The notes beneath the pieces are model-generated. The model was not told the origin of the DNA. It was given only the letters and a program-made list of their open reading frames with translations, and made no database searches. 50,334 nucleotides of DNA from Acidimicrobiaceae bacterium. GTDB taxonomy: Bacteria > Actinomycetota > Acidimicrobiia > Acidimicrobiales > RAAP-2. The stretch lies in assembly GCA_003153575.1 (NCBI GenBank), contig PLZW01000022.1:30573-80906 (forward strand). The letters are read 5' to 3'. The position numbers were made by a program, and so were the translations under genes. This document shows positions 24,589 through 32,182 of this stretch, in pieces (within the stretch, counting starts at the first letter, position 1; every line of letters starts with the position of its first letter).

Positions 24589-25431
24589 GTGGTCGCACTG
24601 TCCGTGGTCCTGGGCGCAGTCGTGCTCCTGCTGGCCGTCCTGGTGGCCGGCTTGTTGCGCAGCCACGCCGACATCCTGAAGGCGCTGCACGACCTCGGCG
24701 CCGGCGTCGGCGATCCGGCGAACGACCGCGCCCACGATCACGGAGGCGATGGGCCCCCGGTCGGTGCCGTGCCCGTCCCCCTCACCATGGGCCCGCCCCT
24801 GGCGACCGACCGCGACTCGACATCGGCCCCCACGCTCGCCGGGGTCACCCCTCGCGGCGACGCCCTGGCCGTGGCCCCTGCCACGGGTGACGGCCTGACG
24901 CTGCTCGCCTTCCTGTCGACCGGGTGTGCCTCGTGCGCCGGATTCTGGGAGTCGTTCCGCCGACCCGCGTCCCTCGGCCTGGCTGCCGGGACCCGGCTGG
25001 TGGTGGTGACCAAGGGACCGGACCGGGAGATTCCGCGGGAGGTCGCCGACCTGGCGGCGCCCGGGCTGTCGGTGCTGATGTCGAGCGAGGCGTGGACCGA
25101 CTACGAGGTCCCCGGCTCACCGTTCTTCGTGCTCGTCGACGGCGCGGCCGGCCGCCGGGTGGGCGAGGGCGTGGCCAACCACTTCAGCCAGGTCGCCGAG
25201 TTGGTGCGCCGCGCCGACATCGACGCCGCCGCCTTTGCCGTCGACGCCGGGTCGGGACGGGACGTCGGCATCGACGGGCCGGCCCGGGAGTCGGCCAACG
25301 ACCGCGAGCTGCGCGACGCCGGCGTCGTCCCGGGCGATCCCAGCCTGTACCCGACCTCGCTGGAGGACCTCTACGGCCCACCCGACGCCAGGATGCCGAC
25401 GGCGCCCCGGCCAATCCGCCGGGCGGGCTGA
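24589..25431 (+). CDS. Membrane-anchored thioredoxin-like protein (MauD-like)
   Basis: A 280-residue protein with one N-terminal membrane helix (residues 2-24, LSVVLGAVVLLLAVLVAGLL), a His/Asp-rich linker (DRAHDHGGD), and an extracytoplasmic thioredoxin-like domain. The active-site motif is C113-ASC116 within FLSTGCASCAGFW, and the cis-proline loop is VPGSPFFVLVD. This architecture is that of MauD, which is needed to form the disulfides of the methylamine dehydrogenase small subunit. GTG 24589 has GGGAGG upstream. It heads a tightly packed five-gene cassette, 2 nt before the next gene. The C-terminal 65 residues are unusual and Pro/Asp-rich. Confidence 0.8.
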   Translation: MVALSVVLGAVVLLLAVLVAGLLRSHADILKALHDLGAGVGDPANDRAHDHGGDGPPVGAVPVPLTMGPPLATDRDSTSAPTLAGVTPRGDALAVAPATGDGLTLLAFLSTGCASCAGFWESFRRPASLGLAAGTRLVVVTKGPDREIPREVADLAAPGLSVLMSSEAWTDYEVPGSPFFVLVDGAAGRRVGEGVANHFSQVAELVRRADIDAAAFAVDAGSGRDVGIDGPARESANDRELRDAGVVPGDPSLYPTSLEDLYGPPDARMPTAPRPIRRAG

Positions 25432-25433
25432 CC

Positions 25434-25922
25434 GTGGCGACGATGTACGCCCACGGGATCGGGGCCGATCTGCCCCCGGGCTTCGAGGGGCGGATCTTCA
25501 CGCGACAGGGCAGCGGCATCGAGGTTGCGAATCCGGTGGCCCAGTTCGCCACGTTCCCGCTGCCCGACGACGTCGGCGACTTCGGGGGCGGGGCGGTCAA
25601 CCTGATGGGCAACAACGACATCTTCGTGGTGCTCTTCGAGTACGGCCCCGACAGCGTGGGCACCCGCCTCTTTGCCCACCAGGGGTTGCCACGGGAGCTC
25701 GTCACCGCCCATTTCCAGCCGCAGGTGCTGCGGCGGGGGTTGTCGGGCCAGTCCGGGACCCAGTGGTTCTTCACCGAGGCGGGCCGGCCGTTCACGCTCT
25801 ACGCGGTGCTCGGCAGCCATGCCCGCCGGTCGGCCCTGGTCCCCCGGGTCAACCAGCTGCTCGCCGGGTTGTCGGTCGACCGGGCACCCGTGGCGCTGGC
25901 GGCGGGTCGGCCGTGGAACTGA
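25434..25922 (+). CDS. Unknown protein of the Mau-like cassette (162 aa)
   Basis: I do not recognise this family. Translation from GTG 25434 (or ATG 25443) gives a protein without signal peptide or membrane segment. Notable stretches are MYAHGIGADLPPGFEGRIF, NPVAQFATFPLPDDVGDFGGG, LMGNNDIFVVLFEYG and GQSGTQWFFTEAGRPFTLYAVLGS, a beta-rich pattern with no cysteines. It is flanked by MauD-like and MauE-like genes, and its end overlaps the latter by 10 nt, so it is almost surely part of the same process. Nothing similar belongs to the classical mau operon as I know it. Confidence 0.75.
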   Translation: MATMYAHGIGADLPPGFEGRIFTRQGSGIEVANPVAQFATFPLPDDVGDFGGGAVNLMGNNDIFVVLFEYGPDSVGTRLFAHQGLPRELVTAHFQPQVLRRGLSGQSGTQWFFTEAGRPFTLYAVLGSHARRSALVPRVNQLLAGLSVDRAPVALAAGRPWN

Positions 25923-26467
25923 TCGGCCCCTACCTGGCCGCCTGCATCCTGTTGGCCGTGGCCGGGGCGGCGAAGGCCGTCCGCCCGATGGACACGGCGC
26001 GGGCGGTGGCGTTGGTGGCTCCGATCCCCCTGACAGCTGGGCGTGGCCTGGTGCGGGCGGGGGCACTGGCCGAAGGGGTCGTCGGTGTGACCGCCCTGGT
26101 CCACCAGTCTCCGGTCACCGCCGGCATGGTGGCGCTGTCCTACCTGGGCTTCGCCGTGTTCGTCGCGTGGGTCCTGGCCCGGGGCGGTCCGCTGGCCACG
26201 TGCGGGTGCTTCGGGCGTCCGGACACCCCGGCCACCTGGCTCCACGTCGTCGTCGACGTGGTCCTGGCCGTGTCGGCCGGTGCCGTGGCCACCACCGTCA
26301 CCCCGTCATGGCTGCCCGCCCTCTTGGCCCACGAACCCTGGAGGGGCGTCCCATTGGTGCTCCTCAGTGTCCTCTGCGCCTGGCTCGCGTTCCTCGCCCT
26401 GTCCCGTCTGGCCGAGCTCGGCGCGGTGCGGCGCCGACTCGGCCTCATCCGGGGGCCGGCGACGTGA
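25913..26467 (+). CDS. MauE/DoxX-like redox-associated membrane protein
   Basis: A 184-residue integral membrane protein with four hydrophobic segments (about residues 3-20, 45-60, 66-85 and 108-128) and a possible fifth near 148-166. Between the third and fourth lies C97-G-C99-FG, the CGCFG signature of MauE and related membrane redox proteins, which work with MauD to place disulfides in exported proteins. GTG 25913 overlaps the upstream gene by 10 nt; its stop overlaps the next gene by GTGA, indicating strict translational coupling with the Cys-rich protein it may help to mature. Confidence 0.8.
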   Translation: MELIGPYLAACILLAVAGAAKAVRPMDTARAVALVAPIPLTAGRGLVRAGALAEGVVGVTALVHQSPVTAGMVALSYLGFAVFVAWVLARGGPLATCGCFGRPDTPATWLHVVVDVVLAVSAGAVATTVTPSWLPALLAHEPWRGVPLVLLSVLCAWLAFLALSRLAELGAVRRRLGLIRGPAT

Positions 26468-27621
26468 GCGCGACCTTGGTGGAGCGTGCGGCCACGTTCC
26501 TGGAGTCGCGGCTGTCGAGGCGCAGCTTCATCAACCGGTCGGCCATGGTGGGAAGTGCGGTGGCCATCGGGTCGGGCGTCGACCTCCTGTTGAAACCGGG
26601 CACCGCCTATGGCGCCGTGTGCACCTGCGCCAACACCTCGTGCGGGTGCGGCACGACGTGCTGTGCCGGTTTCTCGGAGTTCTGCTGCTCGATCAACGGC
26701 GGCTACAACTACTGCCCGACCGATACCGTGATGGGCGGCTGGTGGAAGGCGGACAACTCGACCTTCTGTGGTGGGCCCCGCTACTACATGGACTGCCACG
26801 CCATGTGCGGCTGCAGCACCGGCTGCGGCGGCGGCTGGGGGTTCTGCGAGCCGTCGTGCGACGGAGCGACCTGCGGCTGCGGACCGGCGGGGTGCGACTC
26901 ATGGGTCACCGGTTGCTTCCAGTTCCGCTACGGCCAGTGCAACCAGCAGATCGACTGCATCGGCCGGATCGTGTGCCGGGTGGTCGCCTGCGTGCCCCCA
27001 TGGACGATCGACCCGACGTGCACCACGACGCTGGCGGTGGACAACAGCACAGCCGAGATGAATGCGTCCTGTTGGACGGCGGCACCGCCTTCGCCGCCTC
27101 CGCCCCCGTCGCCACCGTGCTTCTCGGCCGCCACCCGGTGCATGGTGACGGGGATGACGGCCAGTGCGGACGCACGGGGCTATGCGATGGTCACTTCGTT
27201 CGGCAAGATGCTGGCCTTCGGCGACTTCCCGTCCCTCGGCGACATGTCGACGGTCTCCTTGGACCGCGCCATGGTGGGCATGGCGGCCACTCCCTCTGGC
27301 CACGGCTATTGGCTGGTGGCGGCCGACGGCGGGATCTTCGCCTTCGGCGACGCCGCCTTCGCCGGGTCCATGGGTGGCCGAACGCTCAACGCCCCGATCG
27401 TCGCCATCGGTGCCAGCCCGACGGGTCACGGCTACCACCTCGTGGCCGCCGACGGCGGGGTGTTCGCCTTCGGCGACGCCGCCTTCGACGGCTCCATGGG
27501 AGGGCAACGGTTGCAACGTTCCGTCGTGGGCACGGCCCCCGCCGGGGCCGGCTACTGGATGGTGGCGGCCGACGGCGGGATCTTCGCCTTCGACGCGCCC
27601 TTCTACGGATCGCCGGCCTGA
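26464..27621 (+). CDS. Tat-exported Cys-rich protein, MADH light-chain-like domain fused to GYWLVA repeats
   Basis: A 385-residue protein. R19-R20 in LSRRSFINRS and the hydrophobic stretch to about residue 50 form a twin-arginine signal. Residues 53-226 hold 28 cysteines and resemble the methylamine dehydrogenase small subunit: FCCSINGG.YNYCPTDTVMGGWW, FCGGPRYYMDC, QFRYGQCNQQIDC, CRVVACVPPW. W93/W94 align roughly with the tryptophan that becomes part of the tryptophan tryptophylquinone cofactor; the second cofactor tryptophan cannot be placed surely (W147 is a candidate). A Pro linker leads to about 3.5 [10 protein letters not shown] repeats (230-385). No heavy-chain gene (mauB) or mauG lies nearby, so ordinary methylamine oxidation is unlikely. 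GTG 26464 overlaps the previous stop. Confidence 0.75.
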   Translation: MSATLVERAATFLESRLSRRSFINRSAMVGSAVAIGSGVDLLLKPGTAYGAVCTCANTSCGCGTTCCAGFSEFCCSINGGYNYCPTDTVMGGWWKADNSTFCGGPRYYMDCHAMCGCSTGCGGGWGFCEPSCDGATCGCGPAGCDSWVTGCFQFRYGQCNQQIDCIGRIVCRVVACVPPWTIDPTCTTTLAVDNSTAEMNASCWTAAPPSPPPPPSPPCFSAATRCMVTGMTASADARGYAMVTSFGKMLAFGDFPSLGDMSTVSLDRAMVGMAATPSGHGYWLVAADGGIFAFGDAAFAGSMGGRTLNAPIVAIGASPTGHGYHLVAADGGVFAFGDAAFDGSMGGQRLQRSVVGTAPAGAGYWMVAADGGIFAFDAPFYGSPA

Positions 27622-27653
27622 CCGTGCATCCCCGTCCGACCCCTTCCGACCCC

Positions 27654-27727
27654 GACCGACGGAGGAACCCTGTGACCGTGACCCTGACCCTGACCGACGG
27701 CGGAGCCCTGTGACCGCGACCCTGACC
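27654..27727 (+). repeat. Direct duplication of a ribosome-binding/start region
   Basis: Two 36-nt copies (27654-27689 and 27692-27727) match at 33 positions. Each contains a GGAG-type Shine-Dalgarno and a GTG start (27672 and 27710). The first GTG opens a short frame, the second opens the membrane protein gene. Confidence 0.8.
27672..27713 (+). CDS. Possible 13-codon upstream ORF
   Basis: GTG 27672 behind GGAGGA encodes VTVTLTLTDGGAL and stops on a TGA that overlaps the GTG of the next gene (GTGA). It arose from duplication of the start region. It may enhance or delay translation of the downstream membrane protein, or be a by-product without effect. No peptide function is suggested. Confidence 0.35.
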   Translation: MTVTLTLTDGGAL

Positions 27728-28573
27728 GTCCTCGCCCTGTTGGTGGCCGTCGCCGCGGCAGTGCGGTCCACCTGGTCGCCGTGCGGCCTCTCGATGCTCT
27801 CGACCATCACCCCGTTCGGCGAGCGGTCCAAGGGACATCGATTCGAGGCCACCGCCGCCTGGTTCATCCTCGGGGCCACGGCGGGCGGGCTCACCCTCGG
27901 CGCCGTGGCGGCCGGAGCGGCCGGCCTGGTCGAAGCGGCAGCACCCCCGGACACCACGGTCGGGATGGTTGCCCTGATCGCCACCTTGGTGGTGGGCGTG
28001 TCCGACAGCGGGCGGGCCGGAACCCGCCTCCCCGTCCACTACCGCCAGGTGAACGAGCGCTGGCTCGACGCCTACCGCCCCTGGGTCTACGGGGTGGGCT
28101 TCGGGTTCCAGATCGGGTGCGGTCTCGCCACGTACATCACGACCGCAGCCGTCTACCTGGTTGTGGTGCTCGCCGCCTCGACCGCCGACCCGGTCACCGC
28201 CCTGGCCGTCTGTGCTGCCTTCGGCCTGGTCCGGGGACTTGCCGTCCTGCTCACCCACCGCATCCGCACCCCGACCGAGCTGCCCGCCTTCCATCGGCGG
28301 TTCGCCGTCCTCCGGCCGTGGGCCGACCGCGCCATGTCGGCCACAGTGGCGGGGTCCGCCGGGGTGCTCGCCCTGGCCGTCGGCCCGGTGCCCGCCGGGT
28401 ACGCCGTGTTGGGGGTGGCCGCCGGTGCCGGTGGGGTACGGCTGGTCACCTGGCGGGCACGAAGCCCGGACCGGGTCACGGGAGCGCCCGCCCTCACCGT
28501 CGAGGGCATGGGCCTCGACGGCCGCACGCGTGCATCGGCCGAAGCGACGGACCGTTCAGTCGCGCTCGGCTGA
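27710..28573 (+). CDS. Multi-pass membrane protein, CcdA/DsbD-like, last gene of the Mau-like cassette
   Basis: A 287-residue protein with about six hydrophobic segments (near residues 5-20, 45-70, 80-98, 125-155, 160-180 and 205-245). The first ends in STWSPCGLSML (C25), reminiscent of the SPC motif in the first helix of CcdA and DsbD proteins that carry reducing power across the membrane. A second reactive cysteine is less clear (GFQIGCGLATYIT, C145 region). GTG 27710 with GGAG upstream. It lies 88 nt after the Cys-rich protein on the same strand, so it probably supplies or removes electrons for its disulfides. Its last 18 nt overlap the convergent lgt-like gene. Assignment is tentative. 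Confidence 0.65.
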   Translation: MTATLTVLALLVAVAAAVRSTWSPCGLSMLSTITPFGERSKGHRFEATAAWFILGATAGGLTLGAVAAGAAGLVEAAAPPDTTVGMVALIATLVVGVSDSGRAGTRLPVHYRQVNERWLDAYRPWVYGVGFGFQIGCGLATYITTAAVYLVVVLAASTADPVTALAVCAAFGLVRGLAVLLTHRIRTPTELPAFHRRFAVLRPWADRAMSATVAGSAGVLALAVGPVPAGYAVLGVAAGAGGVRLVTWRARSPDRVTGAPALTVEGMGLDGRTRASAEATDRSVALG

Positions 28574-30970: not shown

Positions 30971-32182
30971 TCAGCCCACCCGGCCGACGCCGGCCAGGCC
31001 AGACGTCCGGACGCCGGTGTTCCACACGCTCGCCCCGGTGTAGGGGGCCTCGACCATCTGGCCGCCGCCGATGTACATGGCCACGTGGTCGCTTCCCCCG
31101 GGACCGTAGAAGAGGAGGTCGCCGGGCTGGATGTCGGCCATCGAGATATGGGTGGTGCTGGCGTACTGGGCACCGGAGAAGTGGGGAAGGCTGATGCCGA
31201 CCTGGGCGTAGGCCCACATGACCAGTCCCGAGCAGTCGAACCCGGCCGGGGTGGTCCCGCCCCAGACGTAGGGGACGCCGATCTCGCGCTCGGCGGCCTG
31301 CACGGCACCTCTGGCCCCCGACGACAGCGGGGGAGGCGGTGCCGTCGGGGTGATCGGGACGGAGCTACCGCCCGGTGAGCCGCCTCCGGACGTACCACCC
31401 GTAGTGGTGGCCTGCTGTTGGACCTGGGCTGCCTTTTGCGCCTGGACCTTCTGGTTGAACGCGGCCGCCGCAGCCTGCGCGGCCGCCTCCTGCTCCTGCT
31501 TCTGCTTCTGCTGCACGAGTGCCTGGATGTTCGCATTCACGCTCGCCAGGGTGGACTGGTCCTGGGCGGCCAGGCCCGACGCCTCGCTCTGGGCGGAGGC
31601 GAGGCTGTTACGTGCGGCCTGGGCCTGTGACTTCTGCTGGCCGAGGGAGGCCTGGGTGGCGGCCAACTGGGTCTGGGCCGTGTGGAGATGGTCGATGGTC
31701 GAGGTGACGTTGCCGGTGGCGATGGACGAGTACTCGGACCGGATGCCGCTGGTGTTCACATTCGACGTGAACAACTGGGTGGCCGTGTTCGACGTGCCGG
31801 CGCTGGTGTAGTCGGAGATGGCCTGGACCCGAAGCTGCGACTGGTCCTTGCCCACCTCCCGCTGGTCCTTGACCATCTGCGCCTGGCTGGCGGCTATCTG
31901 ACTCTGCAGCTGCGACAGCTTGTAGTCGGCTTCGTTGATCTGGCCCGTGAGGGACTGGATCCGGGCCTCGGCGGCGTTCAGCTGGGCCGAGATGGCCGCG
32001 GCCTGGGCCTGGGCGCTGGAGATCTGGTCTGCAGAGGCAGGCAAGTCAGAGGTGAAGACCAGCGAGGTGGCTCCGAGAGCGGAGGCCAATGCGATCGTCG
32101 CGAGTACCCGGTTACGGGTCCGATTGCGGCGTGCGGGGCAGGCACCTGGCTCGACCGTCGAATACTGCTCGGCGTGAGTCAT
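30971..32182 (-). CDS. Secreted NlpC/P60 peptidoglycan endopeptidase (RipA-like)
   Basis: A 403-residue cell-wall hydrolase. Residues about 22-52 are a signal peptide (VLATIALASALGATSLVFTSDLPASADQ). Residues 55-255 form a long coiled coil rich in Gln and Ala (AEARIQSLTGQINEADYKLSQLQ), as in the RipA/CwlO class where it holds the enzyme inactive. A Gly/Pro/Ser linker follows. The C-terminal NlpC/P60 domain has the catalytic Cys in GGTTPAGFDCSGLV, His in SDHVAMYIG, and a third polar residue near EAPYTG. It cuts stem peptides at cell separation. The start at ATG 32182 has no Shine-Dalgarno; a promoter 10 nt upstream implies an almost leaderless mRNA. Confidence 0.92.
   Translation of the reverse strand: MTHAEQYSTVEPGACPARRNRTRNRVLATIALASALGATSLVFTSDLPASADQISSAQAQAAAISAQLNAAEARIQSLTGQINEADYKLSQLQSQIAASQAQMVKDQREVGKDQSQLRVQAISDYTSAGTSNTATQLFTSNVNTSGIRSEYSSIATGNVTSTIDHLHTAQTQLAATQASLGQQKSQAQAARNSLASAQSEASGLAAQDQSTLASVNANIQALVQQKQKQEQEAAAQAAAAAFNQKVQAQKAAQVQQQATTTGGTSGGGSPGGSSVPITPTAPPPPLSSGARGAVQAAEREIGVPYVWGGTTPAGFDCSGLVMWAYAQVGISLPHFSGAQYASTTHISMADIQPGDLLFYGPGGSDHVAMYIGGGQMVEAPYTGASVWNTGVRTSGLAGVGRVG

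What the first reader, a model, noticed from the sequence alone, without database searches (positions are those of the whole stretch)
24589..28573. Mau-like maturation cassette around an orphan light-chain-like, Tat-exported protein
Five tightly packed genes encode a MauD-like thioredoxin (C113-ASC116), an unknown protein, a MauE-like CGCFG membrane protein, a 28-cysteine Tat-exported protein resembling the methylamine dehydrogenase small subunit, and a CcdA-like membrane protein. MauD and MauE are known to be needed to form the small subunit's disulfides. Here there is no heavy chain, MauG or amicyanin gene, and the Cys-rich domain is fused to GYWLVA repeats. I recall related proteins in other actinobacteria without a known function. 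The cassette may build a new extracellular quinone-cofactor or disulfide-rich protein whose partner is the fused propeller.
Basis: partly seen in the sequence, partly recalled or inferred. Interest (0 to 1): 0.82.

Follow-up and report, generated by a model that had tools for sequence, protein, structure and literature searches.

The report
Mau-type folding cassette, selenium-dependent in relatives
Five neighbouring genes look like a dedicated kit that exports a cysteine-packed surface protein and gives it its internal cross-links, and in many related bacteria one part of the kit appears to use the rare amino acid selenocysteine.

Summary
The five genes are real and tightly packed: MauD-like, MauE, a MauF homologue (not plain CcdA), a Mog1/PsbP-like protein, and a Tat-exported Cys-rich protein of a family absent from Pfam. 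Of 73 distinct loci with ample flanks, 66 keep all five genes; ten gene orders occur. MauB is found in 0 of 100 genomes (positive control rings), MauG in 4. The light-chain likeness is suggestive, not proven: leader match, top Foldseek hit an amine dehydrogenase light chain (E=2.1, not significant), invariant W/D/C residues; the mature-domain profile score lies within the shuffle range. The second TTQ tryptophan is missing in 110 of 112, so TTQ is unlikely. C-terminal parts are swapped (WLVA, LGFP, CWB2, SLH, ricin-lectin) or absent: surface anchors, not a partner. Unexpected: MauF's one conserved Cys is an in-frame TGA in 55 of 92 distinct loci (Cys in 35, 2 unreadable). All 30 verified TGA genomes have SelA and tRNA-Sec, against 2 of 28 Cys genomes; a hairpin signal follows the TGA. 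The window's own copy is Cys. Best reading: a Mau-type disulfide-folding module for surface proteins, with MauF a probable new selenoprotein family.

The parts
24589..25431 (+). Gene 1: MauD-like membrane-anchored thioredoxin-fold protein, C113-ASC116, one N-terminal hydrophobic segment
   Evidence: TIGR02661 20 bits, under the cut-off; CxxC invariant in the alignment; profile of relatives hits the two real MauD proteins among 19 mau-locus proteins; hydropathy
25434..25922 (+). Gene 2: unknown protein without hydrophobic segment, predicted Mog1/PsbP/DUF1795-like fold
   Evidence: no Pfam or NCBIfam family; model pLDDT 90.9; best Foldseek hits Tsi3, MucB, EagT6, LpqN, PsbP, best E 5.5e-3; co-occurs with gene 4
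25913..26467 (+). Gene 3: MauE, CGCFG, four hydrophobic segments
   Evidence: PF07291 47.1 bits, cut-off 27; K21, E54, C97, G98, C99 invariant
26464..26613 (+). Tat leader of gene 4 (residues 1-50)
   Evidence: RR in 112 of 112; leader aligns to MauA leaders, HHalign E 3.7e-9
26614..27072 (+). Mature Cys-rich, light-chain-like domain with invariant W94, R106, Y107, D110, C111, FRYG, CR
   Evidence: model pLDDT 89.4, pTM 0.84
27160..27621 (+). C-terminal WLVA-type repeats, replaced by other modules in other lineages (approximate start)
   Evidence: sequence
27710..28573 (+). Gene 5: MauF homologue, the Cys form
   Evidence: HHalign to Paracoccus MauF: probability 98.1, E 8.6e-14, 185 columns; profile hits Paracoccus MauF only
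27782..27784 (+). TGC codon of C25 in WSPCG; the equivalent codon is TGA in 55 of 92 distinct loci

Best explanation
The cassette is a self-contained export-and-folding unit. Gene 4 is made with a Tat leader (shown by sequence) and displayed outside the cell by a lineage-specific C-terminal module (inferred from LGFP, CWB2, SLH and lectin domains). Its 26-Cys domain is fully or nearly fully disulfide-bonded (inferred from even Cys numbers) and is oxidised and proofread by the membrane trio MauD, MauE and MauF (inferred from their known role for the MauA light chain). MauF carries the single conserved chalcogen residue: Cys in the window, selenocysteine in most other lineages (TGA codon shown, insertion inferred). 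Gene 2 probably acts in the cytosol as a chaperone or escort of gene 4 (weak inference from its fold and lack of a signal).
For: All four partners in 66 of 73 distinct loci with flanks; ten gene orders among the 90 complete loci, at least 16 order changes on the tree. All 36 genomes with the Cys-rich domain among 100 relatives also have gene 2 and MauF; among the other 64, gene 2 occurs in 1 and MauF in 4, and two of those, G037 and G028, are contig-end breaks. No other gene recurs in more than 6 of 46 representative loci. Even Cys number in 87 of 92 or 104 of 112 domains. MauD, MauE and MauF profiles each pick out their namesake in real mau loci. MauB 0 of 100 with a working positive control. 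Surface modules. Sec-MauF: TGA at the one conserved Cys in 55 of 92; SelA 30 of 30 against 2 of 28; tRNA-Sec 30 of 30 against 2 of 28.
Against: No biochemistry. Homology of the mature domain to MauA is not significant. Six of the 73 well-flanked loci lack MauF nearby (two of these genomes, G062 and G082, have it elsewhere) and L102 has no partner gene nearby. Odd Cys numbers in 8 of 112. SelB passes its cut-off in 25, not all, of the 30 Sec-MauF genomes. Rfam found no SECIS. The genome counts are not phylogenetically independent.
Confidence: 0.7

Rival explanations
1. The Cys-rich protein is a new quinone-cofactor enzyme: a cofactor is formed from the invariant W93/W94, as TTQ is in MauA.
For: W94 in 112 of 112, W93 in 111, D110 in 112; the residues line up with MauA W57 and D76 (roles of these residues recalled). 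L120 and L128 carry Trp at the W108 position. The distant client in L257 has Trp at both places and its ten best database matches are amine dehydrogenase light chains.
Against: W at position 170 in 2 of 112 and W180 in 102 of 112; MauG in 3 of 36 cassette genomes; no heavy chain; no sixth conserved gene.
Confidence: 0.1
2. The Cys-rich domain binds metal, and the Mau proteins keep its thiols reduced.
For: Very high Cys content; Tat export often serves proteins folded with a cofactor (general knowledge).
Against: Even Cys numbers in 104 of 112; the Mau trio serves disulfide formation in MauA (recalled; the reported speculation on MauE seen in passages of PMC7794033).
Confidence: 0.1
3. The TGA codons in MauF are frame or assembly errors, or the gene is decaying.
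For: Most loci come from metagenome assemblies; the window copy is Cys.
Against: The TGA falls on the same codon in 55 distinct loci from several families, the frame is open after it for about 200 codons (218-240 aa products), and it tracks SelA and tRNA-Sec; at least one locus is from an isolate record, L104.
Confidence: 0.04
4. The cassette makes a modified peptide (RiPP-like) rather than a folded surface protein.
For: PMC7794033 reports mauE, once with mauD, beside Cys-rich predicted precursors in Streptomyces (passages).
Against: Gene 4 is a large protein with a confident fold, a Tat leader and anchor modules.
Confidence: 0.05

Closest known systems
mau operon of Paracoccus denitrificans (mauF-B-E-D-A; L147)
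   Same: MauD, MauE and MauF homologues beside a Tat-type, Cys-rich small protein with a similar leader
   Different: no mauB in 100 genomes, mauG in 4 of 100; gene 4 has 26 mature-domain Cys and a C-terminal module; an extra conserved gene 2; MauF is Sec in most lineages outside the window's own
MADH/AADH light chain (Pfam PF02975)
   Same: leader similarity, C-P...W...C...D-C order of invariant residues, rank 1 in Foldseek (2agy_H)
   Different: no Pfam match, no significant profile or fold match, no second TTQ Trp in 110 of 112
MauE/MauD-containing candidate RiPP clusters in Streptomyces (PMC7794033, passages seen)
   Same: mau accessory genes redeployed next to a Cys-rich product
   Different: there small precursors of at least 8 Cys in 3 candidate families; here a conserved five-gene unit with MauF and a large surface protein
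Known prokaryotic selenoproteins (Table 1 of PMC13188914, 119 families/subfamilies, read)
   Same: redox Cys replaced by Sec, with Cys homologues
   Different: MauF is not in that table; no NCBIfam family names it
Eag/DUF1795, LpqN, PsbP fold proteins
   Same: predicted fold of gene 2
   Different: sub-significant matches (best E 5.5e-3), function not established

Membership tests
MADH/AADH light chain (MauA, PF02975) | Match to the Pfam model | tested here: not met
   no match at E<=1 for gene 4, while Paracoccus MauA gives 2e-53
MADH/AADH light chain (MauA, PF02975) | Light-chain fold | tested here: inconclusive
   2agy_H is rank 1 of the Foldseek search but E 2.1, probability 0.06, TM 0.26/0.35; HHalign of the mature domain 17.9 against shuffle mean 13.9, max 20.7, and Cys-fixed mean 13.1, max 17.7
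MADH/AADH light chain (MauA, PF02975) | Tat-type leader | tested here: met
   HHalign of precursors aligns the leaders, E 3.7e-9; RR in 112 of 112
MADH/AADH light chain (MauA, PF02975) | Two TTQ tryptophans (W57, W108) | tested here: not met
   first: W94 in 112 of 112; second: Trp at position 170 in 2 of 112; the correspondence rests on sequence alignment
MADH/AADH enzyme | Heavy chain MauB | tested here: not met
   PF06433 in 0 of 100, positive control rings
MADH/AADH enzyme | MauG | tested here: not met
   PF03150 in 4 of 100, 3 of the 36 cassette genomes
MauE | Pfam MauE and CGC motif | tested here: met
MauD (TIGR02661 equivalog) | Curated cut-off | tested here: not met
   20 bits against 188.6; homologous by profile
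MauF | Homology to Paracoccus MauF with its WSPCG Cys | tested here: met
Selenoprotein (MauF of relatives) | In-frame TGA at a residue that is Cys in homologues | tested here: met
   55 TGA, 35 Cys, 2 unreadable of 92 distinct loci
Selenoprotein (MauF of relatives) | Sec machinery in the same genome | tested here: met
   SelA 30 of 30, tRNA-Sec over 56 bits 30 of 30, SelB over cut-off 25 of 30
Selenoprotein (MauF of relatives) | SECIS hairpin after the TGA | tested here: inconclusive
   fold signal in TGA loci, not in Cys loci; no Rfam SECIS match in 13 loci
Selenoprotein (MauF of relatives) | Selenium in the protein | not testable with these tools
   needs 75Se labelling or mass spectrometry

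The most novel reading that the evidence does not exclude
MauD-MauE-MauF is a widespread actinobacterial disulfide-building module whose MauF is typically a selenoprotein, and whose clients are a large superfamily of Tat-exported, light-chain-like Cys-rich domains displayed on the cell surface; the amine dehydrogenase light chain is only one specialised member of that superfamily.
Probability: 0.5. Interest if true: 0.9.

Novelty: new variant of a known kind. Interest (0 to 1): 0.82.

Why it matters
It would add a selenoprotein family to a well-surveyed list and put selenocysteine at the heart of a membrane disulfide relay, in a natural Sec/Cys exchange that can be compared gene by gene. It would turn the poorly understood mau accessory proteins into a general folding system with clients other than amine dehydrogenase, and give MauF a testable active residue. 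It would also name a conserved, unannotated surface protein family of Acidimicrobiia and other Actinomycetota.

Tried and rejected
TTQ or other quinone enzyme: set aside because the W108 position is Trp in 2 of 112, W180 is lost in 10 of 112, and MauB and MauG are absent or rare.

Proof of the light-chain fold: not obtained. Profile against all solved chains gave 0 hits at E<=10, mature-domain HHalign was within the shuffle range, Foldseek top hit not significant.

PF02975 in the own genome gave nothing; that search had no positive control, so it carries little weight. A plasmid search with a relative's domain gave no match. Rfam gave no SECIS.

G028's match to the Cys-rich domain (E 5.1e-4) was dropped as false: the ORF is a 559-aa protein with 3 Cys. 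Loci G339, G358 and G285 were left out of the Sec/Cys genome counts because their motif could not be read. SelB alone was not used as a marker because the model also rings on other elongation factors.

Literature: nine library searches listed nothing on MauF as a selenoprotein or on this cassette; most subscription papers are not in that library.
Full report
What is in the window. Five + strand genes are packed head to tail at 24589-28573. Gene 1 is a MauD-like thioredoxin-fold protein with one N-terminal hydrophobic segment and C113-ASC116. Gene 2 has no family in Pfam or NCBIfam. Gene 3 is MauE (47.1 bits, cut-off 27). Gene 4 carries a Tat leader, a Cys-rich domain and WLVA-type repeats, 28 Cys in all. 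Gene 5 was called CcdA-like; a profile of its relatives matches Paracoccus MauF with HHalign probability 98.1 and E 8.6e-14 over 185 columns. Among 19 proteins of two real mau loci, my profiles of genes 1, 3 and 5 each select MauD, MauE and MauF; the Cys-rich profile's best hit is a MauA, at an insignificant E of 0.047.

Conservation. The Cys-rich domain is in 36 of 100 genomes of the relatives set (the tool reports 37; I dropped G028 as a false match) and in 31 of 396 genomes drawn across the phylum, 23 of them outside the class. A scan of 84,980 genomes found 282 relatives and kept 80, mostly Acidimicrobiia. From 136 loci I kept 112 with distinct domains. Of the 73 with at least 4.2 kb on both sides, 66 have all four partners within 6 kb, 6 lack only MauF and 1, L102, lacks all; over all 112, 90 are complete, in ten gene orders, with at least 16 order changes on the domain tree. 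In the relatives set all 36 domain genomes also have gene 2 and MauF; among the other 64, gene 2 occurs in 1 and MauF in 4. In G037 and G028 the missing piece falls at a contig end. No other gene recurs in more than 6 of 46 representative loci, so the unit has five genes.

Is it a light chain? Evidence for: the leader aligns with MauA leaders (E 3.7e-9); the model of the mature domain (72 sequences, pLDDT 89.4, pTM 0.84) has an aromatic amine dehydrogenase light chain, 2agy_H, as its best match among 350,542 chains, and only 11 distinct light-chain sequences exist among 177,635; the order C-P...W...C...D-C is invariant in both families. Evidence against or neutral: that match has E 2.1 and TM 0.26/0.35; no Pfam match; no PDB chain at E<=10 by profile; the mature-domain HHalign score of 17.9 lies within 60 column shuffles (mean 13.9, max 20.7) and just above 60 Cys-fixed shuffles (mean 13.1, max 17.7). 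I treat it as a probable distant relative, not a member.

No TTQ. In 112 distinct domains W94 and D110 are invariant and W93 is in 111, but the residue before C171, which lines up with W108 of MauA, is Trp in only 2 (L120, L128), and W180 is present in 102. MauB is in 0 of 100 (the Paracoccus plasmid rings) and MauG in 4 of 100, 3 of them cassette genomes. That W57, W108 and D76 are the catalytic residues of MauA is recalled.

Surface display. Of 68 full-length proteins scanned, Pfam finds LGFP repeats in 17, CWB2 in 3, SLH in 3, ricin-type lectin in 2, DUF4214 in 2 and FG-GAP in 2. By a rough text rule on 98 complete proteins, 26 have WLVA repeats and 2 (L202, L203) have nothing after the domain. 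The conserved part is therefore the Cys-rich domain; what follows looks like an exchangeable anchor. Even Cys numbers in 104 of 112 domains fit full disulfide pairing.

Selenocysteine. Some MauF frames ended after about 22 codons. Reading on showed why: the codon of the only conserved Cys, in WSPCG, is TGA in 55 of 92 distinct loci with a MauF hit, Cys in 35 (33 WSPCG and 2 YSPCG), and unreadable in 2. The products are 218-240 residues long. I verified the motif in 30 TGA genomes and 28 Cys genomes. SelA is in 30 of 30 against 2 of 28 (G021, G025). tRNA-Sec at 56 bits or more is in 30 of 30 against the same 2 of 28, the rest scoring at most 48.7 bits. SelB passes its cut-off in 25 of 30 against 1 of 28. 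Fisher p for 30/30 against 2/28 is 1.7e-14, without correction for kinship. In G079 and G441 tRNA-Sec, selA and a selB-like gene lie within about 9 kb of the cassette, and in G182 selA lies beside it; ARAGORN confirms tRNA-SeC in L201. The 45 bases after the TGA fold better than shuffles (mean z -1.56 in 54 loci) while Cys loci do not (+0.19 in 34); against synonymous recodings the means are -1.40 and -0.06, control stretches -0.38 to +0.47, and the seventh codon is AGC in 54 of 54. Rfam finds no SECIS in 13 loci. The window's MauF is Cys, and its genome (76% complete) has no selA.

Wider system. In 19 further phylum genomes with MauF but no Cys-rich domain (20 loci), plus G084 and G076, MauF has U in 16 of 22 loci, C in 4, undetermined in 2; in 19 of 22 a Tat-type Cys-rich ORF lies on the same strand next to it by a crude motif rule that also gives some antisense hits. 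None has gene 2. L207 and L259 are nearly identical, so they count as one. One such client, in L257, has ten light chains among its eleven best PDB matches (best E 0.011), though no Pfam match. These clients suggest that light-chain-like domains form a larger superfamily.

Gene 2. The model (pLDDT 90.9) resembles Tsi3, MucB, EagT6, LpqN and PsbP, none at E<=0.001. It has no hydrophobic segment. A cytosolic escort is a guess.

Literature. PMC7794033 (passages only) reports mauE, once with mauD, in candidate RiPP clusters with Cys-rich precursors. Table 1 of PMC13188914 (section 7, parts 1 and 2 read) lists 119 selenoprotein families/subfamilies without MauF; term searches inside PMC1794560, PMC9312934 and PMC5029168 found no MauF or methylamine. 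NCBIfam names none of six Sec-MauF proteins; Pfam's DsbD_2 matches three of the six over its cut-off.

Verdict. A Mau-type maturation module without an amine dehydrogenase is well supported (0.7). The selenoprotein nature of MauF in relatives is very likely by comparative evidence. The cofactor idea is unlikely (0.1).

Noticed in passing
L120 and L128 (Mycobacterium and Mycobacteriales MAGs): Trp directly before C171 (VWCRVV), the position that lines up with W108 of MauA; the only 2 of 112.
   Followed up: partly
L257 3212-3835: A Tat-type Cys-rich protein beside a Sec-form MauF, with an LPVDRR leader like MauA, both TTQ-position tryptophans and light chains as ten of its eleven best PDB matches.
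   Followed up: partly
L241-L251, L253, L254, L256 next to MauF: A second family of short Tat-exported proteins with a GGW-RCC...DCC...RINGD pattern beside MauD/MauF, without gene 2.
   Followed up: partly
G079:C12, G441:C35, G182:C1: Selenocysteine machinery genes lie close to the cassette in these three genomes.
   Followed up: partly
L126 (MAG labelled Acidobacteriota): A complete cassette in a record labelled outside Actinomycetota; may be mis-binned.
   Followed up: no
L207 and L259 (G084 and G337): Nearly identical MauF and client sequences in genomes placed in different orders; contamination or transfer.
   Followed up: no
window 30971-32182 (- strand): An ORF whose homologue lies near the cassette in most same-genus loci (called NlpC in my script; name not tested).
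   Followed up: no
L102: An orphan Cys-rich protein with no Mau partner within 7 kb.
   Followed up: no
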